Positions 4,266 to 16,113 of a DNA stretch of 64,000 nucleotides are shown one piece after another; within the stretch, counting starts at the first letter, position 1; the number at the start of each line of letters is the position of its first letter. The DNA lies in the NCBI RefSeq assembly GCF_009680455.1, contig NZ_WKRD01000002.1:186001-250000 (forward strand), in the 5' to 3' direction. The DNA is from Lachnospira eligens (GTDB lineage: Bacteria > Bacillota > Clostridia > Lachnospirales > Lachnospiraceae). The translations under genes were made by a program, and so were the position numbers. The notes beneath the pieces are model-generated. The model worked only from the letters and a program-made list of their open reading frames with translations. It was not told the DNA's origin and did not search any database.

Positions 4266-4834
4266 TAAATCACCCCATTAACGAAATTTTCAATCATTCT
4301 CTTGCCATGCTCTGTATATATTGACTCCGGATGGAACTGCAATCCGACCACCGGATAATCCTTATGTTTTACAGCCATTATTTCTCCATCCTGTGTCTTG
4401 GCAATAATCTCCAGGCAGTCGGGCAAAGTCTTTTCAATTATAGCGAGTGAATGATATCTTGCAACCTTTACTGGTGAATCAAGTCCGGTAAATATTCCTG
4501 TTCCATCATGGTATATTTCAGACTGTTTACCATGCATGATACATTTTGCATAAGAAACAGTCGCGCCAAATGCTTCTCCTATGCACTGATGTCCCAAACA
4601 TATACCAAGTATCGGCTTCTTTCCTGTAAAATGCTTTATTACATCAACACATATTCCAGCATCTTTAGGGCTCTTAGGGCCAGGAGATACAACTATTGAT
4701 TCAGGGTCAAGCTCCTCTATCTCCTCAATTGTTATCTTATCGTTTCTTACAACCTTAATATCACTGTTAAATATTCCAATAAACTGATACAGGTTATATG
4801 TAAATGAGTCATAATTATCAATCAGCAGAATCAT
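4265..4834 (-). CDS. trpG: Anthranilate synthase glutamine amidotransferase subunit
   Basis: 189 residues; class I glutamine amidotransferase that supplies ammonia to TrpE. Nucleophile C79 in GICLGHQCIGEAFG; the His/Glu pair is in LQFHPESIYTEHG (about residues 167-172); PGP loop at 51-53. The length stops right after the amidotransferase domain, so there is no TrpG-TrpD fusion. The start overlaps the trpE stop by 4 bp. TrpG can be shared with folate synthesis (PabA); its place in the operon supports the tryptophan role. Confidence 0.95.
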   Translation of the reverse strand: MILLIDNYDSFTYNLYQFIGIFNSDIKVVRNDKITIEEIEELDPESIVVSPGPKSPKDAGICVDVIKHFTGKKPILGICLGHQCIGEAFGATVSYAKCIMHGKQSEIYHDGTGIFTGLDSPVKVARYHSLAIIEKTLPDCLEIIAKTQDGEIMAVKHKDYPVVGLQFHPESIYTEHGKRMIENFVNGVI

Positions 4835-6249
4835 AAATGTTCCTCCTTAACAAGTGTCTTTGCAAGTGCCATTACTTTATTGCAGCACTCCTGATATTCC
4901 ATCTCAGGCTTTGAATCAGCAACAATTCCTGCACCTGCCTGAAGATATACCTTATCGTCTTTCTTAATCATAGTCCTGATTGTAATGCAGAAGTTCATAT
5001 TACCGCCAAAATCAAGGTATCCTGTAGCCCCTCCATACAGGCCTCTTCTTACTGTCTCAAGCTCATCTATGATTTCCATTGCTCTTATCTTAGGTGCACC
5101 GCTTAATGTGCCTGCTGGAAGGAATGATGATACGAGGTCAAGTGGATGATATTCTCCATTCTTTCTTCCCTCAACAAGTGAAACAATATGCATAACATGT
5201 GAATATCTCTGGATATTCATGAACTGGTCAACCTTAACTGTTCCTATCTCACTTATCCTACCCATATCGTTACGTGCAAGGTCAACTAACATTACATGCT
5301 CTGCTCTCTCTTTCTCATCTGCAAGAAGTTCTTCCTCTAAAGCAATATCCTGTTCCTTTGTTGCTCCTCTTTTTCTTGTGCCCGCTATAGGACATGTATA
5401 TACTTTATTGTCTGACTGCTTTACAATCATTTCTGGTGAACTTCCGATTATCTCAAAATCTCCGAAATTAAAGTAATACATATATGGTGAAGGATTAAGT
5501 TCTCTTAATTTTTCATAGAGATTAAAACCGCTCTGTCCCGTCTTTATTGTCCATCTCTGTGAAAGAACAGTCTGGAATATATGACCTTCTTTTATGTAAT
5601 TCTTAATCTTATTAACCTTCTTGCTATATTGTTCAAGCGTGTCCGATTTTTTCAATATTACACCATCAAGTGACATATCAGGCTTATCATCCTTAAACTT
5701 ATCTACACCCTCTCTTGCAGTCTTTATAAGCTCCTCCGCTTCCTTTAAAGCCTTAATCCTGCCTTCCTCTGAATCCTCTCCAAGCACTACTGCTGTGAAT
5801 GTTTCTGCTGTATGATTGATAGCAATGAACTTGTCTGCAAGCATAAGCTGTATTGTCTCAATTCCTATCTCATCAGGATTATCATCAGGAAGGACTTCTG
5901 TGTATCTTATATAATCATATCCAAGGCTTCCAACAAGACCTCCGATGAAATCAAGTTCTCCCGGATCCTTTACTATCTCGAATTCATCAAAATACTCTTT
6001 AAGTCTTATAAGAGGATTGCCCTCTCTTACCTCTCTGCTTCCATCTTTTCTTGTAATAACAAGGCTGTCCTTATCTGATTGGATTATCTCATTCGGTTCA
6101 ACTCCCATAAAAGTATACTGTCCGCTTTCCTTGTCAGTTCCTTCAAGAAGAAATCCCTTCTTTTCAATTCCAAGTCCTTTGTATAGTTCAATAGCTTTCT
6201 CATTAACGATACTTACCGTCTTCTTATAAGCTCTTAATCTTCGTTTCAT
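4831..6249 (-). CDS. trpE: Anthranilate synthase component I
   Basis: 472 residues, the usual length. Converts chorismate to anthranilate with TrpG. The chorismate-binding C-terminal half carries SPYMYYFNFGDFEIIGSSPE, CPIAGTRKRG, LVDLARNDMGRI, FLPAGTLSGAPK and QAGAGIVADSKPE. The N-terminal half has the TrpE-type LLEG tract where feedback-inhibited enzymes have LLES. It is first in the operon, behind the T-box leader, with GGAGG before the ATG. PabB was considered, but the operon and the T-box with a Trp specifier argue for TrpE. Confidence 0.95.
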   Translation of the reverse strand: MKRRLRAYKKTVSIVNEKAIELYKGLGIEKKGFLLEGTDKESGQYTFMGVEPNEIIQSDKDSLVITRKDGSREVREGNPLIRLKEYFDEFEIVKDPGELDFIGGLVGSLGYDYIRYTEVLPDDNPDEIGIETIQLMLADKFIAINHTAETFTAVVLGEDSEEGRIKALKEAEELIKTAREGVDKFKDDKPDMSLDGVILKKSDTLEQYSKKVNKIKNYIKEGHIFQTVLSQRWTIKTGQSGFNLYEKLRELNPSPYMYYFNFGDFEIIGSSPEMIVKQSDNKVYTCPIAGTRKRGATKEQDIALEEELLADEKERAEHVMLVDLARNDMGRISEIGTVKVDQFMNIQRYSHVMHIVSLVEGRKNGEYHPLDLVSSFLPAGTLSGAPKIRAMEIIDELETVRRGLYGGATGYLDFGGNMNFCITIRTMIKKDDKVYLQAGAGIVADSKPEMEYQECCNKVMALAKTLVKEEHL

Positions 6250-6296: not shown

Positions 6297-6346
6297 AAAA
6301 AATGTCCCTGACAGTAACCTGTATATTGCAGATTCCTGTCAGGGAC
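6297..6346 (-). terminator. T-box-controlled terminator before trpE
   Basis: An 11-bp perfect stem, GTCCCTGACAG (6346-6336) with CTGTCAGGGAC (6314-6304), is followed on the minus strand by ATTTTTT. Its left arm is shared with the antiterminator side of the T-box, so the two structures exclude each other. Confidence 0.93.
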
Positions 6347-6635
6347 GAATTACCGTGGTGCCACCCTTATTTATGAACATACTTGTAATATTAATAAAAA
6401 AGGGGGCACTCCTTACCGGATATGCCACCTGTATGCTCAACTCATTATCAGATACAATTAATATATCCTTCCCCTGTAACGCGAGGCCGCGTCGTAAACT
6501 ACTGCTAATTCATCTACGCATCTCACAAACCCATTCCTTACGGCTCTCCATACTGACATTCCACCACCGCCAGCTCTCTGTGATGTACCTTCCGAAAGTA
6601 CTCTTTTGATCATCGACTTTAAATATTTAACTGCC
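6297..6635 (-). promoter_or_regulatory. T-box leader (tRNA-Trp sensing) of the trp operon
   Basis: On the minus strand the leader shows a Stem I with AGAGAGC and the GGTGG/GAATG arrangement typical of T-boxes. A specifier loop follows, reading GGAATGGG with UGG (Trp) at 6533-6531. The conserved T-box AAGGGTGGCACCACGG (about 6368-6353) comes next and overlaps a terminator stem. Uncharged tRNA-Trp would pair with UGG and with the T-box bulge, favour the antiterminator, and let transcription enter trpE. The downstream genes agree with the specifier. Strong call. Confidence 0.95.
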
Positions 6636-6668: not shown

Positions 6669-6678
6669 GCACAAAAGC

Positions 6679-7050
6679 TTAAAATTTCCTGATATTAACA
6701 ATTGTCTGAACCAGATATACTATGTATAAAACAGCTGCTACAAAAATAAGAACCGTTGTTGCATTTGTAAGTACCAGTATAATCACATTCACAGTAAGAA
6801 GAATAACTACTCCTAAAAGTGTTTTTCCAATTGTTCTTTTAAATACTTTAACGCTTACAATATATACCACAACAAGGATTATCAGAATAATCAAACTCAG
6901 AATCGAAAGTGTTCTCCAAAAAGCATCAAACTCTTCCTGTGTGGTCTGCTGAATCCTTGCAATTCCACTCTGAATAAAAAACATATATAGGTTTATCATC
7001 ATCAAAATTAATGTTACTATTTCTAACAGCATATTCTTTATAACTTTCAT
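6679..7050 (-). CDS. Small four-helix membrane protein, unknown
   Basis: 123 residues with about four hydrophobic segments (near 8-28, 45-67, 75-94 and 95-116), and no catalytic or transport motif I recognise. A good GGAGGAATT site precedes the ATG. It is the last gene of the first c-di-GMP riboswitch cassette (small ORF, DUF3592-like gene, this gene), 55 bp after its neighbour. A broken copy of its first 16 codons lies at 7983-8033 in the second cassette. Function unknown; expression is likely under c-di-GMP control by read-through. Confidence 0.7.
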   Translation of the reverse strand: MKVIKNMLLEIVTLILMMINLYMFFIQSGIARIQQTTQEEFDAFWRTLSILSLIILIILVVVYIVSVKVFKRTIGKTLLGVVILLTVNVIILVLTNATTVLIFVAAVLYIVYLVQTIVNIRKF

Positions 7051-7105
7051 TTCTTAATTCCTCCATATTATATACTCACAATTTAAGTTCACTCTCAATT
7101 GACAC

Positions 7106-7462
7106 TTACATAAGCCTTTCCAATGCCAATAACATTATGTAAAAGCCAACAAGTGCAAACCACACAATACTCAGAATCATATATATGGTCTGTTCATTTC
7201 CCATAACTCCATTATATGGATTATCTTTGTTAACACGTATGGTATAAACAGAACCCCTTTCATGATACATCGAAAATATATTCTTTTTTACACGGCAAAC
7301 ATAATTATGCCCTTTGTATCCATAAATAAACTCAGAAGCGTATTGATATTTATAGCCATTGCCATTTGCAACTCCTTTAGTTTTATAGAAATGCTTTTTT
7401 ATGTATAAAAATCGGGCAAAAAAAACGAGATCCATCATAATACCTATAACCAGTCCTTCCAC
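7106..7462 (-). CDS. DUF3592-like two-helix membrane protein under c-di-GMP riboswitch
   Basis: 118 residues, GTG start with GAGG 8 bp upstream. There is a hydrophobic N-terminal segment (residues 2-20), a soluble middle with the pattern SEFIYGYKGHNYVCRVKK followed by VYTIRVNKDNPYNG, and a C-terminal membrane helix (about 93-113). The order helix, beta-rich segment containing Y-x-V-x-V and N-P, helix is what DUF3592-type proteins show. The middle domain should lie on one face of the membrane. Function unknown. Lies 3 bp after the 41-codon ORF and downstream of the riboswitch at 7722-7805. Confidence 0.75.
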   Translation of the reverse strand: MEGLVIGIMMDLVFFARFLYIKKHFYKTKGVANGNGYKYQYASEFIYGYKGHNYVCRVKKNIFSMYHERGSVYTIRVNKDNPYNGVMGNEQTIYMILSIVWFALVGFYIMLLALERLM

Positions 7463-7465
7463 TTC

Positions 7466-7591
7466 CTACACCTCATATTTCATGTTATTCGACAGCGTTA
7501 GATGCAATGTGTTCGCTTGCTTTCTAATATATTTAATGCTAGCATTTGTATTTTCTCTAACTTCCTCAGAGTTATTAAATAAATTCTTCAA
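7466..7591 (-). CDS. 41-residue small protein, first ORF of riboswitch cassette 1
   Basis: Starts with TTG (7591-7589), preceded by a G-rich AGGGGG site about 11 bp upstream, and ends TAG just before the GTG of the DUF3592-like gene. It reads LKNLFNNSEEVRENTNASIKY, then a basic segment with RKQANTLHLTLSNN. It is polar and probably helical, with no signal or membrane segment. Support for coding: the frame is intact in both cassette copies, with three differing residues (AS to NS in the middle, KQ to KH) and no stops, although the neighbouring gene has decayed in copy 2. Start codon choice is uncertain. Confidence 0.5.
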   Translation of the reverse strand: MKNLFNNSEEVRENTNASIKYIRKQANTLHLTLSNNMKYEV

Positions 7592-7632
7592 TTTTTCTTT
7601 TTCCCCCTATGGTATTTTTGAAGCCTGAATTT

Positions 7633-7684
7633 AAAACAAAAAAGGCTGCACTAAGAAATTTTTAAAAGAATTCTTAATGCAACC
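7633..7684 (-). terminator. Terminator after c-di-GMP riboswitch, copy 1
   Basis: Minus-strand stem GGTTGCATTAAGAA with TTCTTAGTGCAGCC (14 bp including G-U pairs, 7684-7644), followed by TTTTTTGTTTT. It lies between the riboswitch aptamer and the first ORF, where an expression platform terminator is expected. Confidence 0.85.
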
Positions 7685-7721
7685 GAACTATCATAGTATT
7701 AGAGACTTATGCTTATGTGAA

Positions 7722-7805
7722 TCTCTCAACTGAAAATAGTGTTTTTCAGCTTTATACCTCTAGACTTCTAGTTTTGCGTCCTTATATTTCTATAAGTTTG
7801 CCATA
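7722..7805 (-). ncRNA. c-di-GMP-I (GEMM) riboswitch, copy 1
   Basis: Minus-strand landmarks of the GEMM-I aptamer appear in order. GGCAAA (7802-7797) is followed by a perfect helix CTTATA-GAAA-TATAAG with a GNRA tetraloop (7796-7781), then GACGCAAA (7780-7773), then a CTAGA/TCTAG segment with AGGTATAA (tetraloop-receptor arm). A second helix, CTGAAAA/TTTTCAG (7749-7730), and a TTGAGAG tail end it. A promoter lies just upstream and a terminator about 40 nt downstream. It should make transcription of the 41-codon ORF and the membrane protein genes depend on cyclic di-GMP; whether c-di-GMP turns them on or off cannot be read safely. Confidence 0.85.
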
Positions 7806-7816
7806 TTTACTTTTTT

Positions 7817-7845
7817 AATATATATTAATTTATATCACCTGTAAA
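7817..7845 (-). promoter_or_regulatory. Promoter of riboswitch cassette 1
   Basis: TTTACA (7845-7840), 17-bp spacer, TATATT (7822-7817) on the minus strand, with the riboswitch beginning about 15 bp downstream. Confidence 0.75.
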
Positions 7846-7982
7846 CTGCTATTATTGAGATTGATTTGTATCTCTACTGAATTTTATCTTATTTCTTGCT
7901 AAAAGCCTACTCACTCACTTGAATTTCTATCTTGCGTAGGTCTTTTCTCTACCCTCTACCTGTCCTCACACAGCTTTCCGGT

Positions 7983-8033
7983 TTAAAAAATTAATGTTAC
8001 TATTTCTAACAAAACATTCTTTATAACTTTCTT
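7983..8033 (-). pseudogene. 5' remnant of the 123-residue membrane protein gene
   Basis: The minus strand reads as the first 16 codons of the gene at 6679-7050, but the ATG is changed to AAG and a TAA follows after the sixteenth codon. The GGAGGAATT ribosome site is still there. It marks the left end of the second copy of the tandem duplication. Confidence 0.75.
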
Positions 8034-8054
8034 TTCTTAATTCCTCCATATTAT

Positions 8055-8401
8055 TTAATTAAGCCCGTCTAAAGCCAATATTGTTATGTATAAAACATCA
8101 AATACAAACCACATAATACCCAAAATCATATATATAGTCTGTTCATTTCCCATAACTCCATTATATGGATTATCTTTTTTTACACATATGGTATAAACAG
8201 ATTCCCTTTCATGATACATCGAAAATATATTCTTTTTTACACTGCAAACATAATTATGTCCTTTGTTTCCATAAATAAACTCAGAAGAGTATTGATTTGC
8301 ATTACCATTCGCAATGCCTTTGGTTTTGTAGAATTGAGTTTTTATATATATAAATCGAGCGAAAAAAACACATCTAACATAATACCTGCAATTAGTTCCA
8401 T
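8055..8401 (-). pseudogene. Frameshifted DUF3592-like gene (copy 2)
   Basis: Starts ATG at 8401 in the same place as the copy 1 gene, but reads into a TAA after 19 codons. Comparison with copy 1 shows a one-base loss in a T-run near codon 12 (seven Ts here, eight in copy 1). If one base is restored the rest reads open to 8055, keeping SEFIYGNKGHNYVC, DNPYNGVMGNEQTIYM and the C-terminal membrane helix. Apart from this one change the gene is intact. A recent pseudogene or a slippage-controlled gene are both possible. Confidence 0.8.
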
Positions 8402-8404
8402 TTC

Positions 8405-8530
8405 CTACACCTCATATTTCATGTTATTCGACAACGTTAGATGCAATGTGTTCGCATGCTTTCTAATATATTTAATGCTGTTATTTGTATTTTCTCTAAC
8501 TTCCTCAGAGTTGTTAAATAAATTCTTCAA
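8405..8530 (-). CDS. 41-residue small protein, riboswitch cassette 2
   Basis: Same length and frame as the ORF at 7466-7591: TTG start (8530-8528), TAG stop, and residues LKNLFNNSEEVRENTNNSIKY followed by a basic tail with RKHANTLHLTLSNN. It precedes the frameshifted DUF3592-like gene. The open frame despite base changes favours real coding, but the start codon and function are unknown. Confidence 0.5.
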   Translation of the reverse strand: MKNLFNNSEEVRENTNNSIKYIRKHANTLHLTLSNNMKYEV

Positions 8531-8572
8531 TTTTTCTTTTCCCCCCCTATGGTATTTTTGAAGCCTGAATTT

Positions 8573-8624
8573 AAAACAAAAAAGGCTGCACTAAGAAATT
8601 TTTAAAAGATTTCTTAATGCAACC
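8573..8624 (-). terminator. Terminator after c-di-GMP riboswitch, copy 2
   Basis: Same hairpin as copy 1 with one base change in the loop-proximal part: stem arms at 8624-8611 and 8597-8584, followed on the minus strand by TTTTTTGTTTT. Confidence 0.85.
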
Positions 8625-8661
8625 GAACTATCATAGTATTAGAGACTTATGCTTATGTGAA

Positions 8662-8745
8662 TCTCTCAACTGAAAATAGTGTTTTTCAGCTTTATACCTC
8701 TAGACTTCTAGTTTTGCGTCCTTATATTTCTATAAGTTTGCCATA
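8662..8745 (-). ncRNA. c-di-GMP-I (GEMM) riboswitch, copy 2
   Basis: Aptamer identical to copy 1 over its core: GGCAAA, helix with GAAA tetraloop, GACGCAAA, CTAGA/TCTAG with AGGTATAA, and the CTGAAAA/TTTTCAG helix. It is followed by the same terminator. It is placed upstream of the second 41-codon ORF and the frameshifted membrane protein gene. Confidence 0.85.
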
Positions 8746-8756
8746 TTTACTTTTTT

Positions 8757-8785
8757 AGTATATATTAATTTATATCACCTGTAAA
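8757..8785 (-). promoter_or_regulatory. Promoter of riboswitch cassette 2
   Basis: TTTACA (8785-8780), 17 bp, TATACT (8762-8757) on the minus strand. The -10 is closer to consensus than in copy 1 (TATATT). Confidence 0.75.
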
Positions 8786-8993
8786 CTGCTATTATTGAGA
8801 TTGATTTGTATCTCTTCTGATTTTTATCTTATTTCTTGCTAAAAGCCTACTCACTCACTTGAATTTCTATCTTGCGTAGGTCTTTTCCAAACTTCACATA
8901 TTCTGGCACAGTTCTCAGCCTATCCCAGCCCAGCTCTCTACCTGTCCTCATACAGCTTTAAGCCCCAAAGTACTCTCCAGCTTAAAACCCATC

Positions 8994-9635
8994 CTACAAT
9001 ATCTCTGCAAGCTCTGCAAAGCTCTCTATCTTAGCAACATAGCAGTCTTTGGATACGTCTCCAAATCCATACTCAGCATAGATAAAATCTATTCCCGCAT
9101 CTTTGGCAGACTTTGCATCACCTGATGTATCGCCAACATATACAGGATTCTTAAGACCGTTTCTTTCTATAAGTATCTTATTAGACTCGCTCTTTGGCAG
9201 AAATGTTCTTCCCCAGCATTCAGTATCTTTGAAGAAATCGGACATAAGGTGTGCTGTAAGAAAACTTTCAATATAACCATCCTGACAATTGCTCACAATA
9301 TACAATGGATATTTCTTGCTTAGTGTATAAAGAGTTTCTGCAAGCTGTGGATAAAGAATTCCACCTCTTTCTGCAAGATATCCATTCTCAAATGTACACA
9401 GCTCGTCCATAAGTGCATTTCTTACCTGCTCCTGTTCTTGTGGAAACAGTTTTGCAGCTATGTCATACATCGGAAGTCCCATACAGTCGTTAAGGTCTGT
9501 CTCGACAATTGGTGTTCTGTGAATCTCTTCATGACGAGAAAGTATTATATTCCACGCCTCACATATTGGCTTTCTTGTATCCCACATAGTACCGTCAAGG
9601 TCAAATATTATTCCATCATAAGATTTATTAAGCAT
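8994..9635 (-). CDS. HAD-family phosphatase (phosphoglycolate-phosphatase-like)
   Basis: 213 residues. HAD motif I is IIFDLDGTMWDT (D11 and D13), motif II is YIVSNCQDG, a conserved lysine lies in LPKSESNK, and motif III/IV is PVYVGDTSGDAKSAKDAG. The helical cap between motifs I and II fits the beta-phosphoglucomutase/Gph subgroup, so a small sugar phosphate or phosphoglycolate is the likely substrate; specificity cannot be read. The ATG overlaps the end of the TPR gene by 8 bp, so it is the last gene of a set with the transporter and the GH13-like protein. Confidence 0.85.
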   Translation of the reverse strand: MLNKSYDGIIFDLDGTMWDTRKPICEAWNIILSRHEEIHRTPIVETDLNDCMGLPMYDIAAKLFPQEQEQVRNALMDELCTFENGYLAERGGILYPQLAETLYTLSKKYPLYIVSNCQDGYIESFLTAHLMSDFFKDTECWGRTFLPKSESNKILIERNGLKNPVYVGDTSGDAKSAKDAGIDFIYAEYGFGDVSKDCYVAKIESFAELAEIL

Positions 9636-15790: not shown

Positions 15791-15926
15791 AGTAAAACAT
15801 AGACTATATTAAATGAAATCTGAGGACGGAACGGGCAGCCGTCACCCTTGTTGGAGATGTGGGAATGTCACCCCACCTATTTCATTTATTAGTAAGATGG
15901 TAACTCCGGTTACCATCTTTTTTTTT
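15791..15926 (+). ncRNA. Putative structured small RNA, unassigned
   Basis: Transcript bounded by its own promoter and a strong terminator, about 135 nt. A closing stem AAATGAAAT/ATTTCATTT (15811-15819 with 15879-15887) encloses two hairpins: GACGG/CCGTC (15825-15829 with 15839-15843) and GTGGG/CCCAC (15859-15863 with 15872-15876). The loop of the first hairpin contains GGG, which could pair with CCC at 15845-15847 to make a pseudoknot. It does not match SRP RNA, 6S RNA, tmRNA or a riboswitch class I know. No ORF follows on the strand, so it looks like a trans-acting or free-standing RNA. Found by eye; family unknown. Confidence 0.6.
15894..15926 (+). terminator. Terminator of the orphan small RNA
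   Basis: 11-bp perfect stem AAGATGGTAAC/GTTACCATCTT with a TCCG loop, then nine Ts. Confidence 0.92.
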
Positions 15927-16033: not shown

Positions 16034-16041
16034 TAATTCAA

Positions 16042-16113
16042 GCCACCTGCCGGAATCGAACCGGCGACCTTTTCATTACGAGTGAAACGCTCTACCGACT
16101 GAGCCAAGGTGGC
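16042..16113 (-). tRNA. tRNA-Thr (anticodon CGT)
   Basis: 72 nt cloverleaf without encoded CCA. Acceptor stem GCCACCT/AGGTGGC, D arm GGCTCAGTCGGTAGAGC, anticodon loop CTCGTAA with anticodon CGT reading ACG, and a T arm with GGTTCGATTCC. All stems pair. Confidence 0.97.

What the first reader, a model, noticed from the sequence alone, without database searches (positions are those of the whole stretch)
7003..8959. Tandem duplicated c-di-GMP-I riboswitch cassettes controlling small membrane proteins
Two units of about 970 bp in direct tandem each carry promoter, GEMM-I aptamer, terminator, a 41-codon ORF and a DUF3592-like gene. The aptamer landmarks (GGCAAA, GAAA-capped helix, GACGCAAA, second helix) are seen directly; that this motif senses c-di-GMP is established knowledge of the GEMM family. 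GEMM switches usually sit before motility, adhesion or pilus genes; DUF3592-like targets are not typical. Two copies in series may give a graded or dose-sensitive response.
Basis: partly seen in the sequence, partly recalled or inferred. Interest (0 to 1): 0.75.

Follow-up and report, generated by a model that had tools for sequence, protein, structure and literature searches.

The report
Duplicated riboswitch beside a lost adhesin
Two copies of a genetic switch of the type that senses the bacterial messenger c-di-GMP sit side by side in a gut bacterium; the large surface protein they appear to have controlled is cut down to a 41-codon scar, so this is mostly the decayed, duplicated remains of a familiar kind of system.

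Summary
The two c-di-GMP-I riboswitches are real: RF01051, 59.3 bits each, gathering score 35, in a tandem duplication of about 983 bp. The targets were misread. The 41-codon ORF is a deletion scar: its residues 3-41 equal the C-terminus of VWA/TSP3 surface proteins (39 of 39 with partial-length P0213 and P0215; 34 of 39 with the 1,278-aa P0212). In Eubacterium sp. AF22-9 the same leader (97% over the compared part, down to the start codon) opens that surface protein. The upstream unit's 118-aa membrane gene is frameshifted, and its copy of the next gene is a start fragment. DUF3592 is not supported. Of 11 homologous surface-protein loci in other genera, 3 have RF01051 upstream, 2 of them immediately. 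The terminator shares bases with the aptamer's 3' strand, implying an ON switch. Most interesting: the 118-aa gene is swapped and mosaic among strains behind a nearly constant leader.

The parts
8757..8785 (-). promoter-like site of upstream unit B (TTTACA-17-TATACT)
   Evidence: 10 of 12 consensus positions; not above chance as a class
8615..8752 (-). c-di-GMP-I riboswitch aptamer, unit B
   Evidence: RF01051 59.3 bits
8578..8624 (-). terminator-like stem and U run, unit B; its 5' arm overlaps the aptamer 3' strand
   Evidence: -20.6 kcal/mol, -3.7 without GGUUGCAU
8405..8530 (-). 41-codon ORF, unit B: start of the surface-protein gene joined to its last 39 codons (deletion scar)
   Evidence: one search aligned the unit A version; unit B differs from it at two residues
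8055..8401 (-). frameshifted 118-aa membrane-protein gene, unit B
7987..8050 (-). fragment of the start of the 123-aa gene, without its ATG, at the duplication junction
   Evidence: repeat D4, alignment
7817..7845 (-). promoter-like site of downstream unit A (TTTACA-17-TATATT)
7675..7812 (-). c-di-GMP-I riboswitch aptamer, unit A
   Evidence: RF01051 59.3 bits
7638..7684 (-). terminator-like stem and U run, unit A
   Evidence: -19.2 kcal/mol, -2.3 without GGUUGCAU
7466..7591 (-). 41-codon ORF, unit A: deletion scar of the VWA/TSP3 surface-protein gene
7106..7462 (-). intact 118-aa membrane protein gene (GTG start), unit A
6679..7050 (-). 123-aa membrane protein gene, downstream of unit A
6691..8997 (.). 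whole accessory insert; absent at this site in genome G012 and not found there in G014

Best explanation
This is a decayed and tandemly duplicated accessory operon of the Lachnospira eligens group. The ancestral operon was: promoter, c-di-GMP-I ON riboswitch with an overlapping terminator, a ~1,280-aa secreted VWA/TSP3 surface protein, a 118-aa membrane protein, and (at least in some genomes) a 123-aa membrane protein. An internal in-frame deletion removed all of the surface protein except its first two or so codons and its last 39, leaving the 41-codon ORF. The shortened unit was then duplicated, and the upstream copy lost its membrane genes. Shown here: aptamers, terminator stems, duplication, identity of the scar with the surface-protein C-terminus, the same leader before that protein in a relative, the frameshift. 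Inferred: c-di-GMP binding, the ON direction (bound aptamer holds GGUUGCAU, so the terminator cannot form and transcription runs into the membrane-protein genes), and the order of events.
For: Scar = C-terminus (unit A version, residues 3-41): 39 of 39 with P0213 and P0215, 36 of 39 with P0214 and with P0094, 34 of 39 with the 1,278-aa P0212, whose alignment score of 176 compares with a maximum of 57 in 200 shuffles (P0212 has VWA and TSP3). Same leader before the surface protein in AF22-9: L041 77-214, RF01051 58.7 bits; from GGACGCAAAAC to the TTGAAGAA start 193 of 198 and 194 of 199 aligned columns are identical to units A and B. P0010 reads from the surface-protein C-terminus into the 118-aa protein, which fixes the gene order. 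G012 keeps the promoter end and the C-terminal tail of the scar abutted, with the riboswitch gone. Of 11 homologous VWA/TSP3 places in other genera, RF01051 lies immediately upstream in 2 (L085, L091, both genome G242) and 771 nt before the VWA frame in a third (L086). c-di-GMP enzymes: 20, 13 and 20 GGDEF matches in G001, G012, G018. Without GGUUGCAU the terminator drops from -19.2/-20.6 to -2.3/-3.7 kcal/mol.
Against: No DNA of an intact surface-protein gene joined to both the leader and the 118-aa gene was seen on one contig: AF22-9's contig ends before the C-terminus, its frame is interrupted there (which may be an assembly error), and its 118-aa gene is on another contig. The scar stays open in all three copies examined (window A, B and G001; dN/dS 0.11-0.30 on 3-7 changes), so some use of the 41-residue peptide is possible. 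Eight of 11 homologous places show no RF01051 above the gathering score; at least three of these eight (L087, L089, L094) end at a contig end. C. difficile class I switches are OFF switches and direction must be tested case by case (PMC6366702, passages), so the ON direction is an inference.
Confidence: 0.88

Rival explanations
1. One reading: two dedicated riboswitch cassettes evolved to give graded or dose-sensitive control of small membrane proteins.
For: Both aptamers, terminator stems and 41-codon ORFs are intact. Unit A's 118-aa and 123-aa genes are intact; three pairwise comparisons of 118-aa alleles give dN/dS 0.40, 0.56 and 0.16. Tandem c-di-GMP-I doublets are common: 347 counted in PMC9481103 (passages).
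Against: The leader is that of the surface-protein gene in a relative and the ORF behind it is that gene's scar. Unit B encodes no intact membrane protein. The nearest genome G001 has one unit only. The aptamers are 802 nt apart, not in one leader. Near-identity of the block reaches beyond the riboswitch into upstream sequence, so it is no sign of selection on the switch. The 123-aa gene gives dN/dS 1.52 against G001, on only 6 changes.
Confidence: 0.07
2. The 41-codon ORF is a functional small protein or a leader peptide coupling translation to the 118-aa gene.
For: Open in the three copies examined (window A, B, G001), with a G-rich ribosome-binding site by eye; its stop lies 3 nt before the next start; dN/dS below 1.
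Against: Its sequence is just the end of the surface protein, which would explain the codon pattern; 3-7 changes are too few to infer selection; P0064 shows it can be fused away.
Confidence: 0.12
3. The surface protein is a contact-dependent toxin and the variable 118-aa protein its immunity protein, kept after loss of the toxin.
For: Large secreted protein followed by a small, variable, mosaic membrane protein; another riboswitch in G001 precedes a gene with a SUKH match and a sub-threshold Tox-GHH match.
Against: The surface protein's C-terminal end is conserved (34-39 of 39 residues in five proteins) while the 118-aa gene varies (dS 0.72 between the window and G001), the opposite of what a toxin-immunity pair would show; Pfam at E up to 0.001 finds only VWA and TSP3 in P0212.
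Confidence: 0.06

Closest known systems
Bc2 c-di-GMP-I riboswitch / cbpA (cap) collagen adhesin of the Bacillus cereus group (PMC7423583 and PMC6366702, passages seen)
   Same: Class I switch promoting read-through into a large surface adhesin gene; all strains with a cbpA gene or pseudogene kept a predicted riboswitch (PMC7423583 passage, which adds that some pseudogenes may be sequencing errors).
   Different: Here the surface protein is of VWA/TSP3 type, nearly all of it is deleted, small membrane proteins follow, and the remnant is duplicated. The ON direction is inferred here, not measured.
Tandem c-di-GMP-I riboswitches (PMC9481103, passages seen; triplet of B. thuringiensis)
   Same: Two aptamers of the same class on one strand, each with its own terminator.
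   Different: Such doublets, as I understand the review, act in series before one gene; here 802 nt, gene remnants and a second promoter-like site lie between, owing to duplication of the whole unit.
VWA/TSP3 surface proteins of other genera (genomes G242 and G155; L085, L091, L086)
   Same: c-di-GMP-I riboswitch immediately upstream of a secreted homologue (L085, L091); in L086 it lies 771 nt before the VWA frame, with another, interrupted or separate, secreted frame between.
   Different: Matched parts 34-38% identical to P0212; no deletion scar or duplicated unit was looked for there.

Membership tests
c-di-GMP-I riboswitch (RF01051) | covariance-model score above the gathering threshold | tested here: met
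   59.3 bits twice, threshold 35
c-di-GMP-I riboswitch (RF01051) | ligand-pocket residues G20, A47, C92 (numbering of Vc2, recalled, mapped by hand) | tested here: met
   G at model position 11, A in GACGCAAA and C in GGUUGCAU in both copies (alignment); G rather than A at position 20 argues against the cGAMP-type variant; the mapping comes from memory
c-di-GMP-I riboswitch (RF01051) | expression platform that competes with the aptamer | tested here: met
   terminator 5' arm overlaps the aptamer 3' strand; by computation only
c-di-GMP-I riboswitch (RF01051) | binds c-di-GMP | not testable with these tools
   needs in-line probing
tandem (pseudo-cooperative) riboswitch | two switches of one class in series in one leader (definition as I understand PMC9481103 from passages) | tested here: not met
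   802 nt, gene remnants and a promoter-like site lie between
   no match at E up to 1 for the window protein; no Pfam match at E up to 0.1 for P0012, P0070, P0074 and no NCBIfam match at E up to 1 for P0066, P0074; the model with helix-strands-helix order has pLDDT 48.4 and cannot decide
VWA/TSP3 surface protein (parent of the 41-codon ORF) | C-terminus identical and same leader | tested here: met
   39 of 39 residues with P0213 and P0215; leader 193 of 198 and 194 of 199 columns
VWA/TSP3 surface protein (parent of the 41-codon ORF) | VWA domain and TSP3 repeats present in the window copy | tested here: not met
   41 codons remain; no Pfam match in the unit A ORF

The most novel reading that the evidence does not exclude
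A c-di-GMP-gated expression site for swapping surface genes: the nearly constant riboswitch leader plus scar on one side and the 123-aa gene on the other serve as homology arms, so strains keep exchanging the membrane-protein (and perhaps surface-protein) gene between tandem copies and between two chromosomal sites (trpE and argG). The window would then be one state of a recombining, copy-number-variable locus rather than mere decay.
Probability: 0.12. Interest if true: 0.6.

Novelty: new member of a known kind. Interest (0 to 1): 0.33.

Why it matters
It shows how a 'riboswitch with an odd target' can be an ordinary riboswitch whose target was deleted, which matters when riboswitch targets are listed automatically. 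It also points to a c-di-GMP-controlled VWA/TSP3 surface protein in a gut Lachnospira group, and to a membrane-protein gene that is exchanged among strains behind a nearly constant riboswitch.

Tried and rejected
DUF3592: rejected. AlphaFold model of the 118-aa protein: pLDDT 48.4, pTM 0.27, too poor for a fold search, so none was run. Selection on the riboswitch as the reason for its identity between copies: not supported, since the near-identical block also covers upstream non-riboswitch sequence and the scar. A 9-bp direct repeat (AGCTTAAAA at 6676-6684 and 8979-8987, seen by eye) near the edges of the insert as a target-site duplication: not tested. Toxin-immunity reading: disfavoured, see rivals. 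Literature: among the titles listed I saw none on this locus; only passages of PMC9481103, PMC7423583 and PMC6366702 were seen.

Limits of the counts. In one search the weak matches of the 41-residue query in G001 (second place, E 0.34) and G014 (E 0.52) were treated as chance. In one search the weak matches in G020 (E 4.5e-9) and G007 (E 3.6e-6) were not followed. In one search, 70 of 91 proteins (105-122 aa) entered the recombination test and 21 were left out for length; in the type count 16 of 91 had no N-terminal type, and the B-b combination rests on one protein (P0062). The mosaics may partly be metagenome assembly artefacts. The structure alignment A2 used 44 of the 91 homologues. Queries with the 118-aa protein left out the stop codon, and the alignments began after the GTG start. 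One search scored at most 3 candidates per genome. One search accepts proteins up to about 1,290 aa only, so longer ones could be missed. In one search (21 loci) minus-strand loci were read in the wrong orientation; one search repeated 10 of these, and L020, L027 and L032 were not repeated. The leader comparison starts at GGACGCAAAAC, because the first part of the AF22-9 leader carries a short internal repeat at its contig end.
Full report
Observation. On the minus strand of 7003-8959 lie two units in direct tandem. Rfam finds c-di-GMP-I (RF01051) at 7675-7812 and 8615-8752, 59.3 bits each against a gathering score of 35, E 4.6e-9. The duplication is seen in blocks spaced 939-983 bp; its ends fall within the start of the 123-aa gene (7004-7074 repeated at 7987-8057) and upstream of the promoter (7954-7977 repeated at 8936-8959). 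Unit B (upstream in transcription) is 7987-8959, unit A 7004-7986. This is far beyond chance.

Expression platform. Each aptamer is followed by GGUUGCAUUAAGAA...UUCUUAGUGCAGCC and a U run: -19.2 (A) and -20.6 (B) kcal/mol; 300 shuffles of B gave mean -5.7, sd 2.3, minimum -13.7. The first bases of this stem, GGUUGCAU, also belong to the 3' end of the aptamer in the Rfam alignment. Without them the stem is worth only -2.3 and -3.7 kcal/mol. The inference is an ON switch: bound aptamer, no terminator, read-through. The minimum-energy fold of the whole leader without ligand contains the terminator stem, embedded in further pairs. The pocket residues recalled from the Vc2 structure (G20, A47, C92) are present, which argues for c-di-GMP rather than cGAMP.

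The 41-codon ORF is a scar. Searching a relative's surface protein led to P0094, then to P0212: a 1,278-aa protein with a signal-peptide-like N-terminus (by eye), TSP3 repeats and a VWA domain. Residues 3-41 of the unit A ORF match such C-termini: 39 of 39 in P0213 and P0215 (579 and 414 aa), 36 of 39 in P0214 and P0094, 34 of 39 in P0212. In AF22-9 (G018; L041) the same leader, 193 of 198 columns identical to unit A and 194 of 199 to unit B over the compared part, runs to the same TTGAAGAA start and opens that surface protein instead. P0010 runs from the surface-protein end into the 118-aa protein, so the gene order surface protein - 118 aa holds. The deletion therefore took about 1,240 codons and left an in-frame stub. 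G001 has the same stub with a single unit, so the deletion is older than the duplication, or was spread by recombination. That G018 is AF22-9 is inferred from a shared contig length of 50,304.

Unit B is further decayed. Its 118-aa gene is frameshifted (longest listed piece 54 aa at 8055-8219), and its copy of the 123-aa gene is a fragment without the ATG. Only unit A still leads to intact genes (118 aa at 7106-7462; 123 aa at 6679-7050). A transcript starting at B must pass both switches to reach them.

Where the operon occurs. RF01051 is in 34 of 61 relatives. In 22 genomes of the genus the 118-aa gene is in 3 (G001, G012, G018), the 123-aa gene in 2 (G001 once, G018 twice), the 41-codon product at E up to 0.01 in 2 (G001, G012), and the surface protein strongly in 1 (G018), with weak matches in two more. 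The window's site between a phosphatase-like gene (by eye) and the T-box/trpE leader is empty in G012, where the places matching window 6690 and 8998 are 9 bases apart; G014 also shows no match to the insert there but has about 1.07 kb of other sequence. A second site, between an AI-2E-type transporter gene and argG (names by eye), holds the remnant in G012 and is empty in G001: G012's stretch 6716-7401 of L043 is what G001 lacks. In G018 contigs with the leader beside the transporter gene and with the 118-aa and 123-aa genes beside argG end at that site, so it is probably occupied. At the trpE site G018's contig ends just upstream of its 123-aa gene. G001's chromosome length (recalled for Eubacterium eligens ATCC 27750) and the title of L034 suggest Lachnospira (Eubacterium) eligens and a close relative; the genus name is my inference, apart from a Lachnospira label on P0216.

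Typical target. Of 200 genomes drawn from the family, 8 hold a homologue of P0212 at E up to 1e-40, giving 11 places. Fetched with upstream DNA where the contig allowed, 3 of these 11 loci carry RF01051 upstream. In L085 and L091, both of genome G242, it lies immediately before a frame with a signal-peptide-like start (start chosen by eye; the mechanical frame begins inside the riboswitch). In L086 it lies 771 nt before the VWA frame, with another secreted frame that ends in between. Eight show none; L087, L089 and L094 among them end at contig ends. Among other RF01051 loci of the genus, L001 and L025 precede CAP-domain proteins (Pfam). Of the 10 re-read, 7 look CAP-like and 2 peptidase/ABC-transporter-like by eye, and 1 shows neither. 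L002 precedes a SUKH-type gene and L031 a LytTR response regulator. A secreted surface protein is thus an ordinary c-di-GMP-I target, comparable with Bc2/cbpA (PMC7423583, passages).

Variation. Summing the rows by hand, the block from upstream sequence to the end of the stub is 479 of 497 (A-B), 480 of 495 (A-G001) and 489 of 495 (B-G001) identical. The following 118-aa gene is 289 of 337, 250 of 341 and 245 of 337. Between the window and G001 the 118-aa gene has dS 0.72 while the next gene (123 aa) has dS 0.012: an allele was replaced between conserved flanks. Among 91 homologues all four combinations of two N-terminal and two C-terminal types occur (9, 3, 17 and 1 proteins), and on 70 of them neighbouring informative columns are incompatible in 0.133 of pairs against 0.461 after shuffling, 0 of 2000 shuffles as low. 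Recombination is well supported, although metagenome chimeras may contribute. The near-identical block includes sequence outside the riboswitch, so it does not by itself show selection on the switch.

Verdict. Real riboswitches and a real duplication, but the target was misread: a decayed, duplicated copy of a riboswitch-surface-protein operon of a known kind. What stays open is why strains keep swapping the small membrane gene behind a nearly constant switch.

Noticed in passing
window 6338-6622 (-): T-box leader (115.6 bits) directly before a trpE-like gene (4831-6249, named by eye), next to the riboswitch insert.
   Followed up: no
window 15815-15883 (+): 'skipping-rope' RNA (RF02924, 50.1 bits), about 160 bp from a tRNA gene at 16041-16113 on the other strand.
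   Followed up: no
L002 (G001:C1:545635-545750): A c-di-GMP-I riboswitch precedes a gene with a SUKH (SMI1/KNR4) match and a sub-threshold Tox-GHH match, then a second similar frame: c-di-GMP control of a polymorphic toxin-immunity remnant?
   Followed up: partly
window 6676-6684 and 8979-8987: A 9-bp direct repeat AGCTTAAAA lies near both edges of the accessory insert at the trpE site; could be a target-site duplication or chance in AT-rich DNA.
   Followed up: no
L040 1-480, L041 1-120, L042 1-60: AF22-9 contig ends carry short internal direct repeats, likely assembly artefacts at the repeated cassettes.
   Followed up: no
L031 (G006:C38:16336-16422): c-di-GMP-I riboswitch before a LytTR response regulator, a possible link from c-di-GMP to a LytTR-type regulatory system.
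   Followed up: no
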